A stretch of 64,000 nt of DNA from Variovorax sp. PAMC26660 (GTDB lineage: Bacteria; Pseudomonadota; Gammaproteobacteria; Burkholderiales; Burkholderiaceae_C). The translations under genes were made by a program, and so were the position numbers. Where the stretch lies: assembly GCF_014302995.1 (NCBI RefSeq), contig NZ_CP060295.1:186001-250000 (forward strand), written 5' to 3'. This document shows, in pieces, positions 13,803-21,481 of the stretch; positions within the stretch are counted from its first letter, which is position 1, and every line of letters starts with the position of its first letter. Below the pieces are notes generated by a model. The model saw only the letters and a list, made by a program, of their open reading frames with translations. It was not told the origin of the DNA and did not search any database.

Positions 13803-13903
13803 GCTGTTCGTGCCGCCCGTTGATCGCGATGCGGGCGATTATCTGGCATGGCAGGCGGGCGATTTTTCCTGGTTCTGCGCAAGAGGCGCGGGGATGCAAC
13901 ACA

Positions 13904-14392
13904 ATGTCGTTTCGCATGAAGACAATGAACCCGCACCCGAAGCCCCCTCTCGCCGCCGCTGTATTCGACAGCGAATCCCTGCTGCGCGACAGCGGCCTGC
14001 GCGTGACGCGCGCCGCACAAACGGTGCTCGAACTGCTCGAACACAACTCCCAGCCCCTGACGCACGAGGAAGTCGCCGCCGCCTACACCGCCGCCACCGG
14101 CGAGGCGCCCGACCGCGTGACGATCTACCGCGTGCTCGACCGGCTGGTCGAAGCCGGCCTGTGCGACCGCCGTGTGGGCCCCGACCGCGTCAACCGCTTC
14201 TCGCGCCACGTGGAAACCGAATCAGGCAATACCTTCGAGTGCGACCAGTGCCACAAAGTGCTGGCCCTGCCGTCCGACCCCGAACTGCCCAAGGTGATGG
14301 GCCGGCTGGGGAAGGCGCTGCGCAAGCAGGGCATCGATACGCGCCATACGGCGCTCACCCTGCACGGCACCTGCGGCGACTGCGCGAGGTAG
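13904..14392 (+). CDS. zur: Fur-family regulator, probably Zur (zinc uptake)
   Basis: About 162 residues with the Fur winged helix (THEEVAAAYTAATGEAPDRVTIYRVLDRLVEAG) and the structural zinc site C113-x2-C116 plus C157-x2-C160. The identification as Zur rests on its neighbour, a COG0523 zinc-chaperone GTPase whose promoter carries two palindromes. Fur and PerR cannot be excluded by sequence alone. Start is uncertain among 13904, 13916 and 13925; 13904 has a GGGG stretch at a suitable distance. Confidence 0.8.
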   Translation: MSFRMKTMNPHPKPPLAAAVFDSESLLRDSGLRVTRAAQTVLELLEHNSQPLTHEEVAAAYTAATGEAPDRVTIYRVLDRLVEAGLCDRRVGPDRVNRFSRHVETESGNTFECDQCHKVLALPSDPELPKVMGRLGKALRKQGIDTRHTALTLHGTCGDCAR

Positions 14393-14432: not shown

Positions 14433-15626
<1,194 letters not shown>

Positions 15627-15643
15627 CGTGGCGAACTCCATAT

Positions 15644-15660
15644 ATGCAACAGTATTGCAT
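15644..15660. promoter_or_regulatory. Candidate Zur operator 1
   Basis: ATGCAA-CAGTA-TTGCAT, a perfect 6-base inverted repeat with a 5-base spacer, lies 17 bases upstream of the chosen start of the GTPase gene. It sits in an AT-rich strip of a GC-rich genome. The Zur-like regulator is encoded on the other side of the GTPase gene, which supports but does not prove the assignment. Confidence 0.6.
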
Positions 15661-15670
15661 TATATGAATC

Positions 15671-15689
15671 ATCGCAACAATGTTGCATT
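15671..15689. promoter_or_regulatory. Candidate Zur operator 2
   Basis: GCAACA-A-TGTTGC, a perfect inverted repeat (15674-15686) with AT-rich flanks, 10 bases beyond operator 1 and sharing the TGCAA/TTGCA half-site. Two related palindromes in tandem are typical of a repressed metal-uptake promoter. Confidence 0.55.
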
Positions 15690-15728: not shown

Positions 15729-16295
15729 TCAGGCCGCCCGCGCAACCGCCTTCACGGAAATGTCCGGCTTGCGCTTGTACCCCAGCGTCTTTTCGATCAC
15801 GTACTCCACGCCGTGCCAGAAGTTGATTTCCTCCAGCAGCGGGTTGAGGAAATTGGTGATCGAGCAGTAGTGCGAGTTCTTCTGCCCCGCGTGGTGCTGC
15901 GCGTGGTGGCGCTGCGTCTGCAACAGCCTGAGTTTCTGCAGCATCGTGATCAATCGGCCGTTTTCATGCGGCGCGCGATGCGCCCATTTGTGGACCTGGT
16001 TGGCGTTGATGCTGATCACCGTGAACAGCCACACCTTCCAGGTCAGCGCCTTGAGCCACCATGCGCCCATCAGTACCAGTGCACCGGTCAGCACCAGGTC
16101 CCACGAACTGGCCCACCAGCCGCGCAGCACGAAGGCGCGGGGCCGCACGTGGTGCTCGATGTTGGCCTCGCCGATCCATCTGCCCACCACGGGTGTTTCC
16201 TTGCGGACGTAGGCGTCTTCCGCCCAATGCACGAGACCACTGATGAAGTCGGCCAGAAGAACCACGCCGACGAACTGGAACACAAGATCTCTCAT
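15729..16295 (-). CDS. Kua/CarF/PEDS1-type desaturase (plasmanylethanolamine desaturase homologue)
   Basis: A 188-residue membrane protein matching TMEM189/PEDS1, CarF of Myxococcus and plant FAD4. It has HWAEDAY (His23), NIEHHVRPRAF (His48/49), NQVHKWAH (His102/106) and QRHHAQHH (His130-135), then NFLNPLLEEINFW, all in family order. At least two hydrophobic segments span residues 7-22 and 64-98. CarF and PEDS1 introduce the vinyl-ether bond of plasmalogens using oxygen. It is shorter than CarF (about 281) but has the full catalytic core. No ether-lipid synthesis gene is visible, so the substrate is open. Confidence 0.85.
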   Translation of the reverse strand: MRDLVFQFVGVVLLADFISGLVHWAEDAYVRKETPVVGRWIGEANIEHHVRPRAFVLRGWWASSWDLVLTGALVLMGAWWLKALTWKVWLFTVISINANQVHKWAHRAPHENGRLITMLQKLRLLQTQRHHAQHHAGQKNSHYCSITNFLNPLLEEINFWHGVEYVIEKTLGYKRKPDISVKAVARAA

Positions 16296-16493: not shown

Positions 16494-16910
16494 ATGACCG
16501 ACTTTTCCACCTTCGTCGCCCCGCCGCCATCCGACGAACCAAACGCCGACGCCGTCGAAGCCGCATCCGACTGCCTCGACCGGTTCACGGCGGCGTTCAA
16601 TGCGTCGGACACCCGCGCGATGGATGCCGAGCTTCATTTTCCGCACCTGATGCTCTCCGGCGCGCAGCGGCTCGAATGGGCCGAGCCCGGACAGCATCCG
16701 CATGACTTCTTCGACAAGCTGAAAGCCTCAGGCTGGTCCCGGACGCAGTACGAGAAAAAAGACGCCGTGCTCGTGAGCAACGACAAGGTGCATTTCGTCG
16801 TCACCTACACACGGCGGAACGACGCGGGCGTGGTGCTCAGCACCCATTGCAATCTGTGGATCGCCACGCGAGTCGATGGGCACTGGGGAATCGCCCTGCG
16901 CTCGTACTAG
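16494..16910 (+). CDS. SnoaL-like/DUF4440-type protein
   Basis: A 138-residue NTF2-fold protein. The N-terminal helix (DCLDRFTAAFNASDTRAMDAEL), the central KLKASGWSRTQYEKKDAVLVS segment and the terminal LWIATRVDGHWGIALRSY are typical of SnoaL-like folds. The ATG at 16494 has GAAGG immediately upstream. It is divergent from the desaturase gene and converges on the phosphonate-locus HD gene. No catalytic motif allows a function to be assigned. Confidence 0.75.
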   Translation: MTDFSTFVAPPPSDEPNADAVEAASDCLDRFTAAFNASDTRAMDAELHFPHLMLSGAQRLEWAEPGQHPHDFFDKLKASGWSRTQYEKKDAVLVSNDKVHFVVTYTRRNDAGVVLSTHCNLWIATRVDGHWGIALRSY

Positions 16911-16930: not shown

Positions 16931-17488
16931 CTACAGCGCGACCTGCGCCATCTTCTGCAGATAGTGCGCCAGCGGCGGTGTCACCTTTCCCGTCACCTTC
17001 GCCAGGTCGTCATAGCGCCGCACACGCAACGATTCTTCGGCGAACGGCGCGCGCATGAAGGCCTCGGCTTCTTCCTGCGTATGGCGCCCGCCCTGCAACT
17101 CCAGGCTGTGCTTCGAAGCCGGCGACAGCGTGTCCCAGTAGCCCGCGTCCAACGTGCACAGGCAGCGCTTCGCATCCACATGCAGGCGGATCGGCGCCAG
17201 CACGCCGGGCGGAAACACCCCGTGCAGGAAAGGCAGCGCGATGTATTGGTGCAAGTCGTCCCGCGCCCGCGGCGCTTCGGTTGCTTCTTCCTGTGCGTTC
17301 GTGGGCGCGAGCAGATGGCCGAGGTCGTGCAGCAGCGCCGCCACCACGGTCTCTGTGCTCTCCCCCGCGTCTTCCGCCAGCGCCGCGCACTGCAGCGCGT
17401 GGTCGAGCTGGCTCACGGCTTCGCGGCCGTATTGCTGCTGGCCACGCCCGGCCAGCAACCGTGCGATGTCGTCCAGGGTCAATGCCAT
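16931..17488 (-). CDS. PhnZ-like HD-domain mixed-valent diiron oxygenase
   Basis: A 185-residue HD-domain protein of the phosphonate-operon type. The PhnZ ligand set is complete: His30, His54, Asp55, His80, His103 and Asp160 or 161. The Tyr20-x2-Glu23 pair matches Tyr24/Glu27 of PhnZ. PhnZ cleaves hydroxylated aminoethylphosphonate to glycine and phosphate using oxygen. No PhnY-type hydroxylase gene is in the window. The gene starts 9 bases after phnE and is probably the last gene of the phnCDE transcript. Confidence 0.87.
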   Translation of the reverse strand: MALTLDDIARLLAGRGQQQYGREAVSQLDHALQCAALAEDAGESTETVVAALLHDLGHLLAPTNAQEEATEAPRARDDLHQYIALPFLHGVFPPGVLAPIRLHVDAKRCLCTLDAGYWDTLSPASKHSLELQGGRHTQEEAEAFMRAPFAEESLRVRRYDDLAKVTGKVTPPLAHYLQKMAQVAL

Positions 17489-17497
17489 GCTGTGCGC

Positions 17498-18301
17498 CTA
17501 GATCAGCACCTTGCGAATGCGCGCCGACACCAGGTCGATCGCGCTCACGCTCACCACGATGATGATCATCACCGCGCAGGTCTCGGCGTACTGAAACCCA
17601 CGAATGATTTCCCACAGCACCACGCCGATGCCGCCCGCGCCCACCATTCCGACCACCGACGCCGAACGGATGTTCGACTCGAAGCGGTACAGCGCATAGG
17701 AAATCCACAGCGGCATCACCTGCGGCAGTACGCCGTAGACGATCTCATGCAGCGCGCTCGCACCGGTCGAGCGAATGCCCTCGACCGGCTGTGTGTCGAT
17801 GGCCTCCACCGCCTCGGCAAAAAGCTTGGCCAGCACGCCGGTCGTGTGCACCCAGAGCGCCAGCACGCCGGCAAACGGCCCCAGGCCCACGGCCACCACG
17901 AACAGCATCGCGAACACCATCTCGTTGATGGCGCGGCAGCTGTCCATCAGGCGGCGCATCGGCTGGTAGATCCACCACGGCACGATGTTGGCCGAGGCCA
18001 GCAGCGCCAGCGGCACGGCCGTCACCACCGCCAGCACCGTGCCCCACAGCGCGATCTGCAGCGTGACCACCATCTCCTGCAGGTACATGCGCCACTGCGT
18101 GAAGTTGGGCGGAAAGAACTCGGCGGCGTAGGTCGCCATGTTGCCGCTGTCGCGGATCAGGTCAAGCGGCCGCATGTCGGCCCCCTTCCACGAGGCGAGC
18201 AGCAGAACCAGCAGCACGGCCCAGGAAAGCTGCCACGCCAGGTTGCGCTTGGGAACCACCGCGGCAAGCGGCGGGCGGGTCATCGGAATCGTCGAGGCCA
18301 T
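17498..18301 (-). CDS. phnE: Phosphonate ABC transporter permease
   Basis: A 267-residue inner-membrane permease with about six hydrophobic segments. The [20 protein letters not shown] segment is the coupling loop that contacts Phn[16 protein letters not shown] is the family-typical C-terminal stretch. It carries phosphonates across the inner membrane with PhnC and PhnD. There is only one phnE, not the split pair found in some strains. It follows phnD with a 37-base gap. Confidence 0.94.
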
Positions 18302-18338
18302 GGCGGTCGGTCTGTGGTGGTGCTGCAGCGGTCGGCGA

Positions 18339-19283
18339 TCAGTTCAGCGCGGACAGCTTCTTGTCGATGTCGGCCAGGCGCGTCTTCTTTTCGGCGTCGC
18401 TCAGCACGGTGTCGGCTTCGATCTTGGTGCGCTGGCCGAACAGGTCGAGCTGGCGAATGGGCACCAGTTGCTTGTCGCTCGATTCCTTGAAGCCCGAGAG
18501 CTTGGAGATCTTCATGACGATCTCTTTCTCGCGCGGATCGGTCTTGGCGTAGTTGAAGAAGAAGTTCTTCAGCTTCGTCTTGGTGGCTTCGGGCAGGTCC
18601 TTGCGCATGACCAGCGGGTCGAGCGGAATCAGCGGCGAGGTCCAGACGATCTTGATGTCCTTGAACTTCTCGGGGAAGCGCTCCTTGACCTTCTCCAGGT
18701 TTTCGCTGTTGTTGGTCGCCACGTCGACCTGCTTGTTGGCCACGGCCAGCGAATTGGTTTCGTGGTTGGCGCTGCGCGTCACGCGGAATGCGGTCTTGGC
18801 GTCGATCTTGTTCTGCGCAAAGACGTAGAAGCCGGGCACGAGGTAGCCCGAGGTCGAGTTCGGGTCGCCGTTGCCGAAGCTCAGGTTCTTGGCGTTCTTC
18901 AGCACATCGTCGAGCGTGTTGAGCGGGCTCTCGCGGTTGACGATCAGGTGCGAGTAGTAGCCCTGGGTGCCGTCGGCATTGACCATCTGCGCAAACACTT
19001 CGCCGCTGGCGCGGTCCACGGCTTCCATGGCCGACTTATTGCCGAACCAGCCCAGCTGCACCTTGTTGAAGCGCATGGCTTCGATGATGCCGGCGTAGTC
19101 CGGTGCGAAGAAGGCCGTGACCTTCAGGCCGGTCTGGCGGCTCATGTCGTCGATCAGCGGCTGCCAGTCGCCCTTGAGGTTCTGCGTCGCCTCTGTCGAG
19201 ATGATGCCGAAGTTGATGTCTTGCGCAAACGCGCCGACCATGCCCAGGCCGAGGGCCAGGGCTGCACAGAGTTTCTTGATCAT
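18339..19283 (-). CDS. phnD: Phosphonate ABC transporter periplasmic binding protein
   Basis: A 314-residue binding protein with a signal peptide (cleavage after GAFA, then [15 protein letters not shown]). The conserved ligand region is [24 protein letters not shown], followed by [14 protein letters not shown] and [18 protein letters not shown]. The ATG at 19283 has GGAG seven bases upstream. The gene lies between phnC and phnE in the usual CDE order. Its exact ligand may be 2-aminoethylphosphonate or another phosphonate. Confidence 0.95.
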
Positions 19284-19345
19284 GGATGACTCCAAAGTGG
19301 AACGTTGGGAAAGAAAAACGGGGCACGCCGCAGCGCGCGCGAGAG

Positions 19346-20233
19346 TCAGGCGACCTTGGCCGGGCGCGCAGCCCATGGCATCGCCACGGGCGGTGGCAGC
19401 ACATGCACGCTGGCGCCTTCGGCGGCCGGCGCGACTGGTGCAGCGGACACCGCGGGCCGCAGCAGTTCTTCGGCCTGCACGCCATACAGCTCGTGCAGCA
19501 GCGCGGGCGTGAGCGCCGACGAAGGTCCGTCGAACACCACCTGGCCCTGGTTCAGCGCCACGACGCGCGGGCAGTACTTCATGGCAATCTCGACCTGGTG
19601 CAGCGACACGACCACGGTGCAGCCGTCTTCGCGGTTGATGCGCGCCAGGATCTCCATGACCTTGCGCGACGACTCCGGGTCCAGCGAGGCAATGGGTTCG
19701 TCGGCAAGCACCACCTTGGCACCCTGCACCAGCGTGCGTGCGATGGCAGCGCGCTGCTGCTGCCCGCCCGACAGCGTGGAGGCACGCTGCGCATGGCAGT
19801 CGGCAATGCCCACGCGCGCCAGCGCTTCAAGGGCCAATGCGCGCTCCTGCGCAGTGAACAGGCGCATCCAGCTGCGCCACCACGGCATGCGGTGCAGCGA
19901 GCCCACGAGCACGTTCACCAGCACCGGCAGCCGCGCGACAAGATTGAACTGCTGGAACACGAAGCCGACCTGCGAGCGCACCTTGCGGATGTCGCAGTGA
20001 ATGCGACCGCCCTGCTGCACGCAGCGCCCGTCGATCTCCACCAGCGACCGCGTCGCGCCGTCGGCCGCCACCAGCCCGGCGATGTGCCGCAGCAGCGTCG
20101 ACTTGCCGGAGCCCGAGGCGCCGATGAGCGCCACCATCTCGCCGCGTGCCACATCGAGATTGATGTCGCGCAACGCATGCTTGCCGTTGGCGAAGTGCTT
20201 GTTGAGCTGTCGGATATGCAAAAGAGTGTTCAT
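19346..20233 (-). CDS. phnC: Phosphonate ABC transporter ATP-binding protein
   Basis: A 295-residue ATPase. It has Walker [10 protein letters not shown], the ABC signature [13 protein letters not shown] and Walker [13 protein letters not shown]. The ATPase is followed by a tail of about 40 Pro/Ala-rich residues not found in the shorter E. coli protein (262 residues). ATG 20233 follows GAGG. A PhnF-type operator lies 15 to 26 bases upstream of the start, so phnCDE has its own control separate from phnG-M. Confidence 0.95.
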
Positions 20234-20247
20234 GGCGGGCCTCAAAG

Positions 20248-20259
20248 TCGTCTAGACAA
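20248..20259. promoter_or_regulatory. PhnF-type operator upstream of phnC
   Basis: TCGTCTAGACAA contains the perfect palindrome GTCTAGAC, the core of HutC/PhnF-type operators (GTnTAnAC). It lies 15 to 26 bases upstream of the phnC start and 10 of 12 bases match the site at 26108. It probably lets PhnF control phnCDE and the HD gene. Confidence 0.75.
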
Positions 20260-20326
20260 ATGCAGTCTCGCCAACCGGTATGACGCGGCAGCGACACTTC
20301 AGCGACGAGCGCGTGTCACGCAGATT

Positions 20327-21481
20327 TCAGATGACGCGGCGCCCTTCGCGCCAGACGCCGCGCACCAGCGGATGCCGGGTGCCATCGGGCAAGGTGCACA
20401 TGCGCACCTGCACCAGGTCCGCACGCAAACCGGCTTCGAGCGCACCGCGGTCGTGCAGCCGTGCGGCGCGTGCCGGCGCCTGCGTCACCATGGCCACGGC
20501 TTGCGGCAGCGTGACGAGTGCGTCGTCCACCAGCCGCATCGCCGCGCCCAGCAGGCTGCTGGGCACATAGTCGGAAGAAAGAATGTCGAGCAGGCCGTCA
20601 CGCGCCAGATCGGCCGCGGCCACATTGCCCGAATGCGAGCCGCCGCGCATCACGTTCGGCCCGCCCATCACGTTGGCAAGGCCCAATGCACGCGCCGCGC
20701 GTGCCGCCGCCAGCGTGGTCGGAAACTCCGACATGCTCGCGCCCTCGGCATGGGCCTGCTCCACATGCGCCACCGTGGTGTCGTCGTGGCTGGCAAGCGC
20801 AATGCCATGGGTGCGGCAGTGGTCGACAAAGTGTCGACGGTGCGGTTGCGCGTACTCGGTCTGCAACCTGCCCGACTCGGCCAGACGCCGCTCGAACTTG
20901 CTGTCGCTCCAGCCCTTCTTGCCGGTGTAGTACACACGCGCCAGCTCGATGTCTTCCCACTGCCGCTGGCCCGGTGTGTGGTCCATCAATGAAATCAGCG
21001 ACAGCCGCGCGTGTCCGCGAAAGGGCTCGAACAGCTCGATGGTGTTGGGCGCGGGCAGCTCGCAGCGCACATGCAGGTGATGATCGGCGCGCAGCAGGTC
21101 CTGTGCGGCGCAGGCATCGAGCATGGCCAGCGTCGCGCCCCAGGTGCTGCCGCGCAGGCTTTCCGGGTCGGCCTCGCCCACGCCGAGCGCGTCGAACACC
21201 GTGGTGATGCCGGCGGCAGCCACCTCGGCGTCGTGTGCCAGCAGCGCCGGCAGCGGGTTCCAGTGCACCTTCGGGCGCGGCATCAGGTGGCGCTCGAAGT
21301 TGTCGGTGTGGATCTCCACCAGGCCCGGCAGCAGGTAGTCGCCGTCCAGGTCGATCGAGCCTTCGGCGCTCGGGCCGCTGTGAATCGCGTCGATGCGGCC
21401 ACCGGCCACCGACAGTGAACCTGACACCACTTCGTTCGGCAGCACCATGCGTGCGTTGGCGAAGACCATGCGTGCGCTCAT
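20327..21481 (-). CDS. phnM: Alpha-D-ribose 1-methylphosphonate 5-triphosphate diphosphatase
   Basis: A 384-residue amidohydrolase-fold enzyme that removes diphosphate from the C-P lyase intermediate. Metal ligands are in the early LVEIHTDNFERH motif and the later DHCRTHGIALASHDDTT and HSGN segments. The start overlaps the phnL stop in ATGA, so translation is coupled. It is the last gene of the C-P lyase run, and 93 bases separate it from phnC, which has its own operator. Confidence 0.95.
   Translation of the reverse strand: MSARMVFANARMVLPNEVVSGSLSVAGGRIDAIHSGPSAEGSIDLDGDYLLPGLVEIHTDNFERHLMPRPKVHWNPLPALLAHDAEVAAAGITTVFDALGVGEADPESLRGSTWGATLAMLDACAAQDLLRADHHLHVRCELPAPNTIELFEPFRGHARLSLISLMDHTPGQRQWEDIELARVYYTGKKGWSDSKFERRLAESGRLQTEYAQPHRRHFVDHCRTHGIALASHDDTTVAHVEQAHAEGASMSEFPTTLAAARAARALGLANVMGGPNVMRGGSHSGNVAAADLARDGLLDILSSDYVPSSLLGAAMRLVDDALVTLPQAVAMVTQAPARAARLHDRGALEAGLRADLVQVRMCTLPDGTRHPLVRGVWREGRRVI

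What the first reader, a model, noticed from the sequence alone, without database searches (positions are those of the whole stretch)
15729..16295. Kua/CarF/PEDS1-type plasmalogen desaturase homologue in a betaproteobacterium
The 188-residue protein keeps every histidine cluster of TMEM189/PEDS1 and CarF in order (His23; His48/49; His102/106; His130-135) and the C-terminal NFLNPL/INFW region. CarF-type enzymes use oxygen to form the vinyl-ether bond. A short, complete-core homologue in this genome suggests either ether-lipid/plasmalogen biology or a related fatty-acyl desaturation such as that of FAD4. No ether-lipid gene is visible nearby.
Basis: partly seen in the sequence, partly recalled or inferred. 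Interest (0 to 1): 0.7.

Follow-up and report, generated by a model that had tools for sequence, protein, structure and literature searches.

The report
Uncharacterised CarF/FAD4-superfamily lipid desaturase in Variovorax
A soil bacterium carries a small iron-type membrane lipid enzyme related to the one that makes plasmalogens in animals, but it belongs to a separate bacterial branch with a different active-site residue, so what lipid it modifies is unknown and probably not a plasmalogen.

Summary
In detail: window 15729-16295, minus strand, encodes a 188-residue Pfam PF10520 (Lipid_desat) protein (E 8e-38) with the eight catalytic histidines and the essential aspartate of PEDS1/CarF/FAD4. 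It is under purifying selection (dN/dS 0.07-0.14). The plasmalogen reading is not supported. The ninth, plasmalogen-linked histidine is Arg58, as in FAD4; mouse Phe118 is Asn45, invariant in the query plus 120 listed homologues and in 46 of 46 genomic relatives. On the CarF profile two animal PEDS1 score 221-238 bits, FAD4 80, this protein 71. In a tree it falls with short bacterial proteins, split from PEDS1+FAD4 by a 95/92 branch. The PlsA/Ger-type domain PF09989 is in 0 of 52 carrier genomes. An AGPS-like gene exists in this genome, but beside glpD- and glpP-like genes, and reaches E<=1e-40 in only 2 of 51 other carriers. Against this, profile comparison puts it nearer PEDS1 than FAD4. Best reading: a di-iron acyl-lipid desaturase (possibly a hydroxylase) of a third PF10520 subfamily, substrate unknown.

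The parts
15729..16295 (-). PF10520 Lipid_desat gene, 188 aa, third (short bacterial) subfamily
   Evidence: E 8.2e-38; tree; AF2 pLDDT 94.1
16227..16229 (-). H23, equivalent of mouse PEDS1 H96 (essential)
   Evidence: alignment; mutagenesis in PMC8960569
16215..16217 (-). D27, equivalent of mouse PEDS1 D100 (the non-His residue whose loss abolished activity)
   Evidence: D in 121 of 121; PMC8960569
16161..16163 (-). N45, at the position of mouse PEDS1 F118; diagnostic of this subfamily
   Evidence: N in 121 of 121 and 46 of 46; PEDS1 F 7/7; FAD4 F5 S2 A1
16149..16154 (-). H48-H49 (mouse H121-H122)
16122..16124 (-). R58, at the position of the plasmalogen-linked ninth histidine (mouse H131, CarF H113)
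   Evidence: PEDS1 H 7/7, FAD4 R 8/8; PMC9131029
15978..15992 (-). H102-x3-H106 (mouse H187, H191)
15891..15905 (-). H131-xx-H134-H135 (mouse H215, H218, H219)
14433..15641 (-). zigA, zinc metallochaperone GTPase, downstream neighbour (context only)
   Evidence: NF038288 691.2 bits, above its 600 cut-off
16494..16910 (+). unnamed ORF that lies directly beside zigA in three Variovorax genomes lacking the desaturase (context only)
   Evidence: no Pfam or NCBIfam match; start at 16494 inferred from where conservation begins

Best explanation
A compact integral-membrane di-metal (most likely di-iron), oxygen-dependent lipid enzyme of a third, bacterial subfamily of the PF10520 superfamily. Shown: the family, the eight metal-binding histidines plus the essential Asp, a confident helical model, purifying selection, a position outside PEDS1 and FAD4 in the tree with its own signature residues (N45 121/121, E26 120/121, Q126 119/121, P152 117/121, N148 116/121), and a patchy presence beside zigA. 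Inferred: the histidines bind two irons; with electrons from a cellular donor and O2 the enzyme removes two hydrogens from a saturated chain of a membrane phospholipid close to the head-group end, as FAD4 does on the sn-2 acyl chain of phosphatidylglycerol. Because ether-lipid precursors are not indicated in most carriers, an ester-linked acyl chain is the likelier substrate. The bond position, and desaturation rather than hydroxylation, are not established.
Against: By profile-profile comparison the subfamily is nearer PEDS1 (E 3.6e-32) than FAD4 (E 4.8e-22), and it shares K103, N99 and T147 with PEDS1. Core identity to either is only 27.6-31.9%. The tree carries long-branch warnings. No conserved lipid operon was found. 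The sub-cut-off PF04116 match (E 5e-5) and Scs7p as best fold leave hydroxylation open. Foldseek against the PDB was not significant.
Confidence: 0.5

Rival explanations
1. It is a true plasmanyl-lipid (vinyl-ether) desaturase like CarF/PEDS1, acting on alkyl-ether lipids made with the AGPS-like enzyme of this genome.
For: Eight His plus Asp; profile closer to PEDS1 than to FAD4; this genome has an AGPS-like protein whose best solved relative is alkyl-DHAP synthase (2uuu, E 1.9e-45), with an SHHHGVG stretch aligned to both AGPS entries shown; that gene is in 2 of 37 same-genus genomes, both of which carry the desaturase; NCBI and JGI name homologues 'CarF family' or 'plasmanylethanolamine desaturase'.
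Against: R58 replaces the ninth His and N45 replaces Phe118; plant and alphaproteobacterial homologues without that His did not complement carF (PMC9131029); CarF-profile score at FAD4 level; the AGPS-like gene lies between glpD-like and GlpP-antiterminator genes; the genome of EL159, whose desaturase is 97% identical, has only a 29%-identical match at 5.7e-33, and 2 of 51 other carriers reach E<=1e-40; PF09989 in 0 of 52.
Confidence: 0.13
2. It is a lipid hydroxylase: the same di-iron site inserts one oxygen atom into an acyl chain or head group.
For: Secondary match to PF04116 FA_hydroxylase (24.2 bits against a cut-off of 31), also listed for many homologues; best fold match is the Scs7p hydroxylase domain.
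Against: PF10520 outscores PF04116 by over 100 bits; the fold is shared by desaturases and hydroxylases, so it does not decide; Foldseek alone gave no significant PDB match.
Confidence: 0.2
3. [quoted passage not shown]
For: Arg at the ninth-His position in 8 of 8 FAD4 rows and in this protein; a TPVVG stretch shared with Arabidopsis FAD4; CarF-profile score at FAD4 level.
Against: N45 versus F in 5 of 8 FAD4 rows, N99 versus Q in 8 of 8, K103 versus A in 7 of 8; not grouped with FAD4 in the tree, where the FAD4 stem is long and its place unsure; profile farther from FAD4 than from PEDS1.
Confidence: 0.12

Closest known systems
PEDS1/TMEM189 and CarF (plasmanylethanolamine desaturase)
   Same: PF10520; eight essential His and the Asp100 equivalent; K103, N99; 31.9% identity over the core to mouse PEDS1
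   Different: ninth His is Arg, Phe118 is Asn; aligns only to 66-244 of the 269-position CarF model, so the N-terminal part is missing; shorter loop before the HxxxH motif; outside PEDS1 in the tree
FAD4 (3-trans desaturase of chloroplast phosphatidylglycerol)
   Same: PF10520; eight His; Asp; Arg at the ninth-His position; 30.1% identity to Arabidopsis FAD4
   Different: N45, N99, K103, Q126, N148 and P152 differ; not in the FAD4 clade
Other proteobacterial PF10520 proteins (L053-L056, genomes unnamed)
   Same: same domain; L054 is 38.0% identical; three of four fall on this side of the main split
   Different: two of four carry the Asn
Scs7p / fatty-acid hydroxylase superfamily (PF04116)
   Different: 13% identity; PF04116 below cut-off

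Membership tests
PF10520 Lipid_desat superfamily | domain match over the curated cut-off, whole length | tested here: met
   130.6 bits against 26.4, 2-172/175
PF10520 Lipid_desat superfamily | eight conserved histidines and the essential Asp (mouse D100) | tested here: met
CarF/PEDS1 plasmanyl desaturase | ninth histidine (mouse H131, CarF H113) | tested here: not met
   R58; PEDS1 H in 7 of 7 rows
CarF/PEDS1 plasmanyl desaturase | Phe118 (F118A keeps 5.9% activity, PMC8960569) | tested here: not met
   N45
CarF/PEDS1 plasmanyl desaturase | groups with PEDS1 in a tree | tested here: not met
   95/92 branch; long-branch warning stands; no Myxococcus CarF row was available
CarF/PEDS1 plasmanyl desaturase | NF045946 equivalog score | tested here: not met
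   70.8 bits against cut-off 500; animal PEDS1 also miss that cut-off (237.9, 220.8), so the ranking matters more: FAD4 79.8
CarF/PEDS1 plasmanyl desaturase | forms a vinyl ether bond / complements carF | not testable with these tools
   needs lipidomics or complementation
FAD4 | groups with FAD4 in a tree | tested here: not met
   FAD4 stem length 2.41, placement unsure
FAD4 | Arg at the ninth-His position | tested here: met
   R58; FAD4 R in 8 of 8 rows
FAD4 | 3-trans desaturation of phosphatidylglycerol | not testable with these tools
   needs lipid analysis
Fatty acid hydroxylase superfamily | PF04116 over its curated cut-off | tested here: not met
   24.2 bits against 31
Fatty acid hydroxylase superfamily | shared fold with a solved hydroxylase | tested here: inconclusive

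The most novel reading that the evidence does not exclude
The short bacterial PF10520 proteins with the invariant Asn form a third functional class, whose reaction is neither the vinyl-ether nor the 3-trans desaturation but a still undescribed double bond or hydroxyl in a bacterial membrane lipid, with the Phe-to-Asn change three residues before the HH pair re-tuning the di-iron site.
Probability: 0.4. Interest if true: 0.6.

Novelty: new variant of a known kind. Interest (0 to 1): 0.37.

Why it matters
Databases name these bacterial proteins 'CarF family' or 'plasmanylethanolamine desaturase', which invites unsupported claims of plasmalogens in aerobic bacteria. The residues given here (N45, E26, and the lack of the ninth His) separate this group from PEDS1 and FAD4 by eye. 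If the reaction is new, the enzyme is a small, single-domain handle on PF10520 chemistry, for which no solved relative was found by sequence (at E<=1; one search gave only two unrelated chains at 0.37 and 0.73).

Tried and rejected
Conserved operon partner: 48 related loci, L050 and the window were compared. zigA adjacency was seen only in five Variovorax copies (window, L002-L005), and phn genes in three of them (window, L002, L003; the contig of L004 ends before it could show any). Annotated neighbours in other Burkholderiales are a chromate transporter (L006), a RES-domain protein (L008), an ABC1 kinase (L011) and a DUF1993 protein (L033) (ten neighbours scanned, most others not). So zinc or phosphonate biology is not supported for the gene.

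Zinc control of the desaturase: the two palindromes near zigA lie beyond the desaturase stop, beside zigA; I saw none upstream of the desaturase (by eye only, no scan run).

AGPS-desaturase co-occurrence: looked striking in the genus (2 of 2 AGPS-like carriers among 37 genomes also carry the desaturase) but failed in the wider set (2 of 51 at E<=1e-40). L003 was not held and not searched. Many of these genomes are MAGs and may be incomplete. Eight further genomes had matches only between 9.4e-35 and 3.4e-31, which I take as ordinary FAD-oxidase level without further test. Of the own-genome FAD oxidases, L057 and L060 were judged by NCBIfam names only, L058 and L059 also by solved relatives; L062/L063 gave no solved relative at 1e-20.

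Direct solved relatives by sequence: none. Foldseek PDB: none significant. A family absent is not excluded.

Dropped before counts: loci L044 and L048 were not caught by the motif filter, and L001, L051, L052 were left out as copies of the window, L004 and L005; one of the 47 locus rows is a gap in the first columns. Only the 120 listed of 182 homologues entered; seven PEDS1 rows and eight FAD4 rows were picked by hand from the 120 listed of 2729 and of 662. The tree used 67 rows chosen by hand; the AF2 alignment used 61.

Full report
What is there. The ORF at 15729-16295 is real and lies on the minus strand. It encodes 188 residues, and six codons separate the preceding in-frame stop from the ATG. 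Pfam gives PF10520 Lipid_desat at 130.6 bits, E 8.2e-38, covering 2-172 of 175 positions, and PF04116 FA_hydroxylase at 24.2 bits, below its cut-off of 31. The genome (7.39 Mb, one contig) has one copy. The host is a Variovorax: the best named relative is Variovorax sp. EL159 at 97%. Five Variovorax copies give dN/dS of 0.067-0.144 over 10 pairs; the gene has 61.5% G+C against 66.6% for the window.

Active site. Werner et al. 2022 (PMC8960569; abstract and parts 1 and 2 of 4 of the text read) report that histidines 96, 121, 122, 187, 191, 215, 218 and 219 of mouse PEDS1 are essential, that D100A is dead, that F118A keeps 5.9%, and that H131, conserved in PEDS1 and not in FAD4, keeps 7.4% when changed. 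The review PMC9131029 (passages read) says that the matching CarF histidine H113 is essential, is absent from plant and alphaproteobacterial homologues, and that those homologues did not replace CarF. In an alignment of seven PEDS1, eight FAD4 and 172 bacterial rows, this protein has the eight histidines and the Asp (D27), but Asn45 at the Phe118 position and Arg58 at the H131 position. Across the query and 120 listed homologues the eight histidines stand in 120, 121, 121, 121, 121, 118, 119 and 119 of 121. Asn45 stands in 121 of 121, in 46 of 46 genomic loci with a letter there, and in 2 of 4 other proteobacterial proteins; PEDS1 has F 7/7, FAD4 F5 S2 A1. The R58 column is R88 K13 H9 L6 N5 in the 121 and L18 R11 N8 H4 K4 in the loci, so it is not conserved, and a minority of relatives do have His there. 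Glu26 is 120 of 121, against Ala 7/7 in PEDS1 and Ile 7 Thr 1 in FAD4. K103, N99 and T147 are shared with PEDS1.

Place in the superfamily. A tree of 67 rows and 194 columns separates PEDS1 + FAD4 + one proteobacterial row (L053) from 48 short bacterial rows and three other proteobacterial rows by a 95/92 branch. The program warns of long branches (among them L053, L056, L049, L055 and the FAD4 stem), and the 48 short rows are not strictly one side of a branch because L054 and L056 fall among them. No Myxococcus CarF row was at hand. Core identity is 31.9% to mouse PEDS1 and 30.1% to Arabidopsis FAD4. On NCBIfam's CarF model the scores are 237.9 and 220.8 for two animal PEDS1, 79.8 for FAD4, 70.8 for this protein, and 76.6 and 61.7 for two relatives. 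Against this, profile-profile comparison puts the subfamily closer to PEDS1 (E 3.6e-32) than to FAD4 (E 4.8e-22). So it is a separate branch, neither a demonstrated PEDS1 nor a FAD4.

Distribution and site. PF10520 is found in 3 of 37 same-genus genomes and 4 of 61 relatives in all, the own genome counted, in 5 of 398 Pseudomonadota, own genome counted, and in 1 of 194 Verrucomicrobiota, that one being the chosen centre itself. Of nine same-genus genomes that have zigA but no desaturase and whose zigA flanks were fetched, three (G009, G010, G016) have zigA directly beside the small ORF that in the window lies on the far side of the desaturase, with about 100 bases between them; in the other six that ORF was not seen within the flank. 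So the gene was gained, or lost, as a unit at this place.

Ether-lipid genes. PF09989, which I recall as part of the PlsA/Ger type of ether enzyme, is absent from this genome and found in 0 of 52 carrier genomes including it; the control rang in 4 of 14 genomes. Of seven PF02913 matches in the genome, one (G000:C1:7276784-7278331) has alkyl-DHAP synthase as best solved relative (2uuu E 1.9e-45; 4bby E 9.8e-38), ahead of lactate dehydrogenase LctD, and an SHHHGVG stretch aligned with both. It directly abuts a glpD-like gene (DAO and DAO_C domains) and ends 10 bases before a GlpP-type antiterminator gene, which points to glycerol-3-phosphate metabolism. It occurs in 2 of 37 same-genus genomes, both desaturase carriers. 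Among 51 other carrier genomes it reaches E<=1e-40 in two: G453, the same assembly as G007 judging by identical coordinates, and G476 (genome of L028), where the match holds two in-frame stops. EL159 has only a 29% match at 5.7e-33. Thus most carriers keep the desaturase without it.

Mechanism. Shown: family, metal ligands, Asp, selection, separate branch. Inferred: di-iron, O2 and an electron donor, removal of two hydrogens from a chain of a membrane phospholipid near the head group. I hold this at 0.5, with a hydroxylase at 0.2, a vinyl-ether desaturase at 0.13 and a strict FAD4 equivalent at 0.12.

Literature. Searches (listings and starts of abstracts; text of PMC8960569 and passages of PMC9131029 as said) showed no paper describing the short bacterial group. 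One search listed one paper that holds both 'Variovorax' and 'plasmalogen' (PMC3339601, a review of hydrocarbon remediation), which I did not read. The library lacks most subscription papers and preprints. [quoted passage not shown]

Noticed in passing
L064:7784-9334 (own genome G000:C1:7276784-7278331): An alkyl-DHAP-synthase-like FAD protein with SHHHGVG sits between glpD-like and GlpP-antiterminator genes, in only 2 of 37 same-genus genomes; its role in an aerobic betaproteobacterium is unexplained.
   Followed up: partly
window 15644-15660 and 15674-15686: Two palindromes (ATGCAACAGTATTGCAT and GCAACAATGTTGC) just upstream of zigA, with a Fur-family gene at 13820-14392; perhaps a zinc-responsive operator (inference).
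   Followed up: no
L012-L022, L024-L026, L030, L036-L039: In 19 loci from verrucomicrobial records the desaturase has the same divergent neighbour, a LysR-type regulator by eye (no family search run), while the other flank changes.
   Followed up: partly
L032:1558-4725: A fused acyltransferase/AMP-ligase gene lies downstream on the same strand as a verrucomicrobial desaturase; the only direct lipid-gene neighbour among those scanned.
   Followed up: no
L005:3493-4697: zigA of Variovorax sp. E3 matches in two frames (residues 1-66 and 67-402), an apparent frameshift.
   Followed up: no
homologues P0016, P0034, P0051 and others: JGI names many of these proteins 'ubiquitin-conjugating enzyme E2 variant', a misnomer that probably stems from the human Kua-UEV1 fusion.
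   Followed up: no
window 16931-21481: Next to the gene lies a phosphonate cluster: a Phn-HD oxygenase, PhnE, PhnD, PhnC and PhnM matched NCBIfam models.
   Followed up: partly
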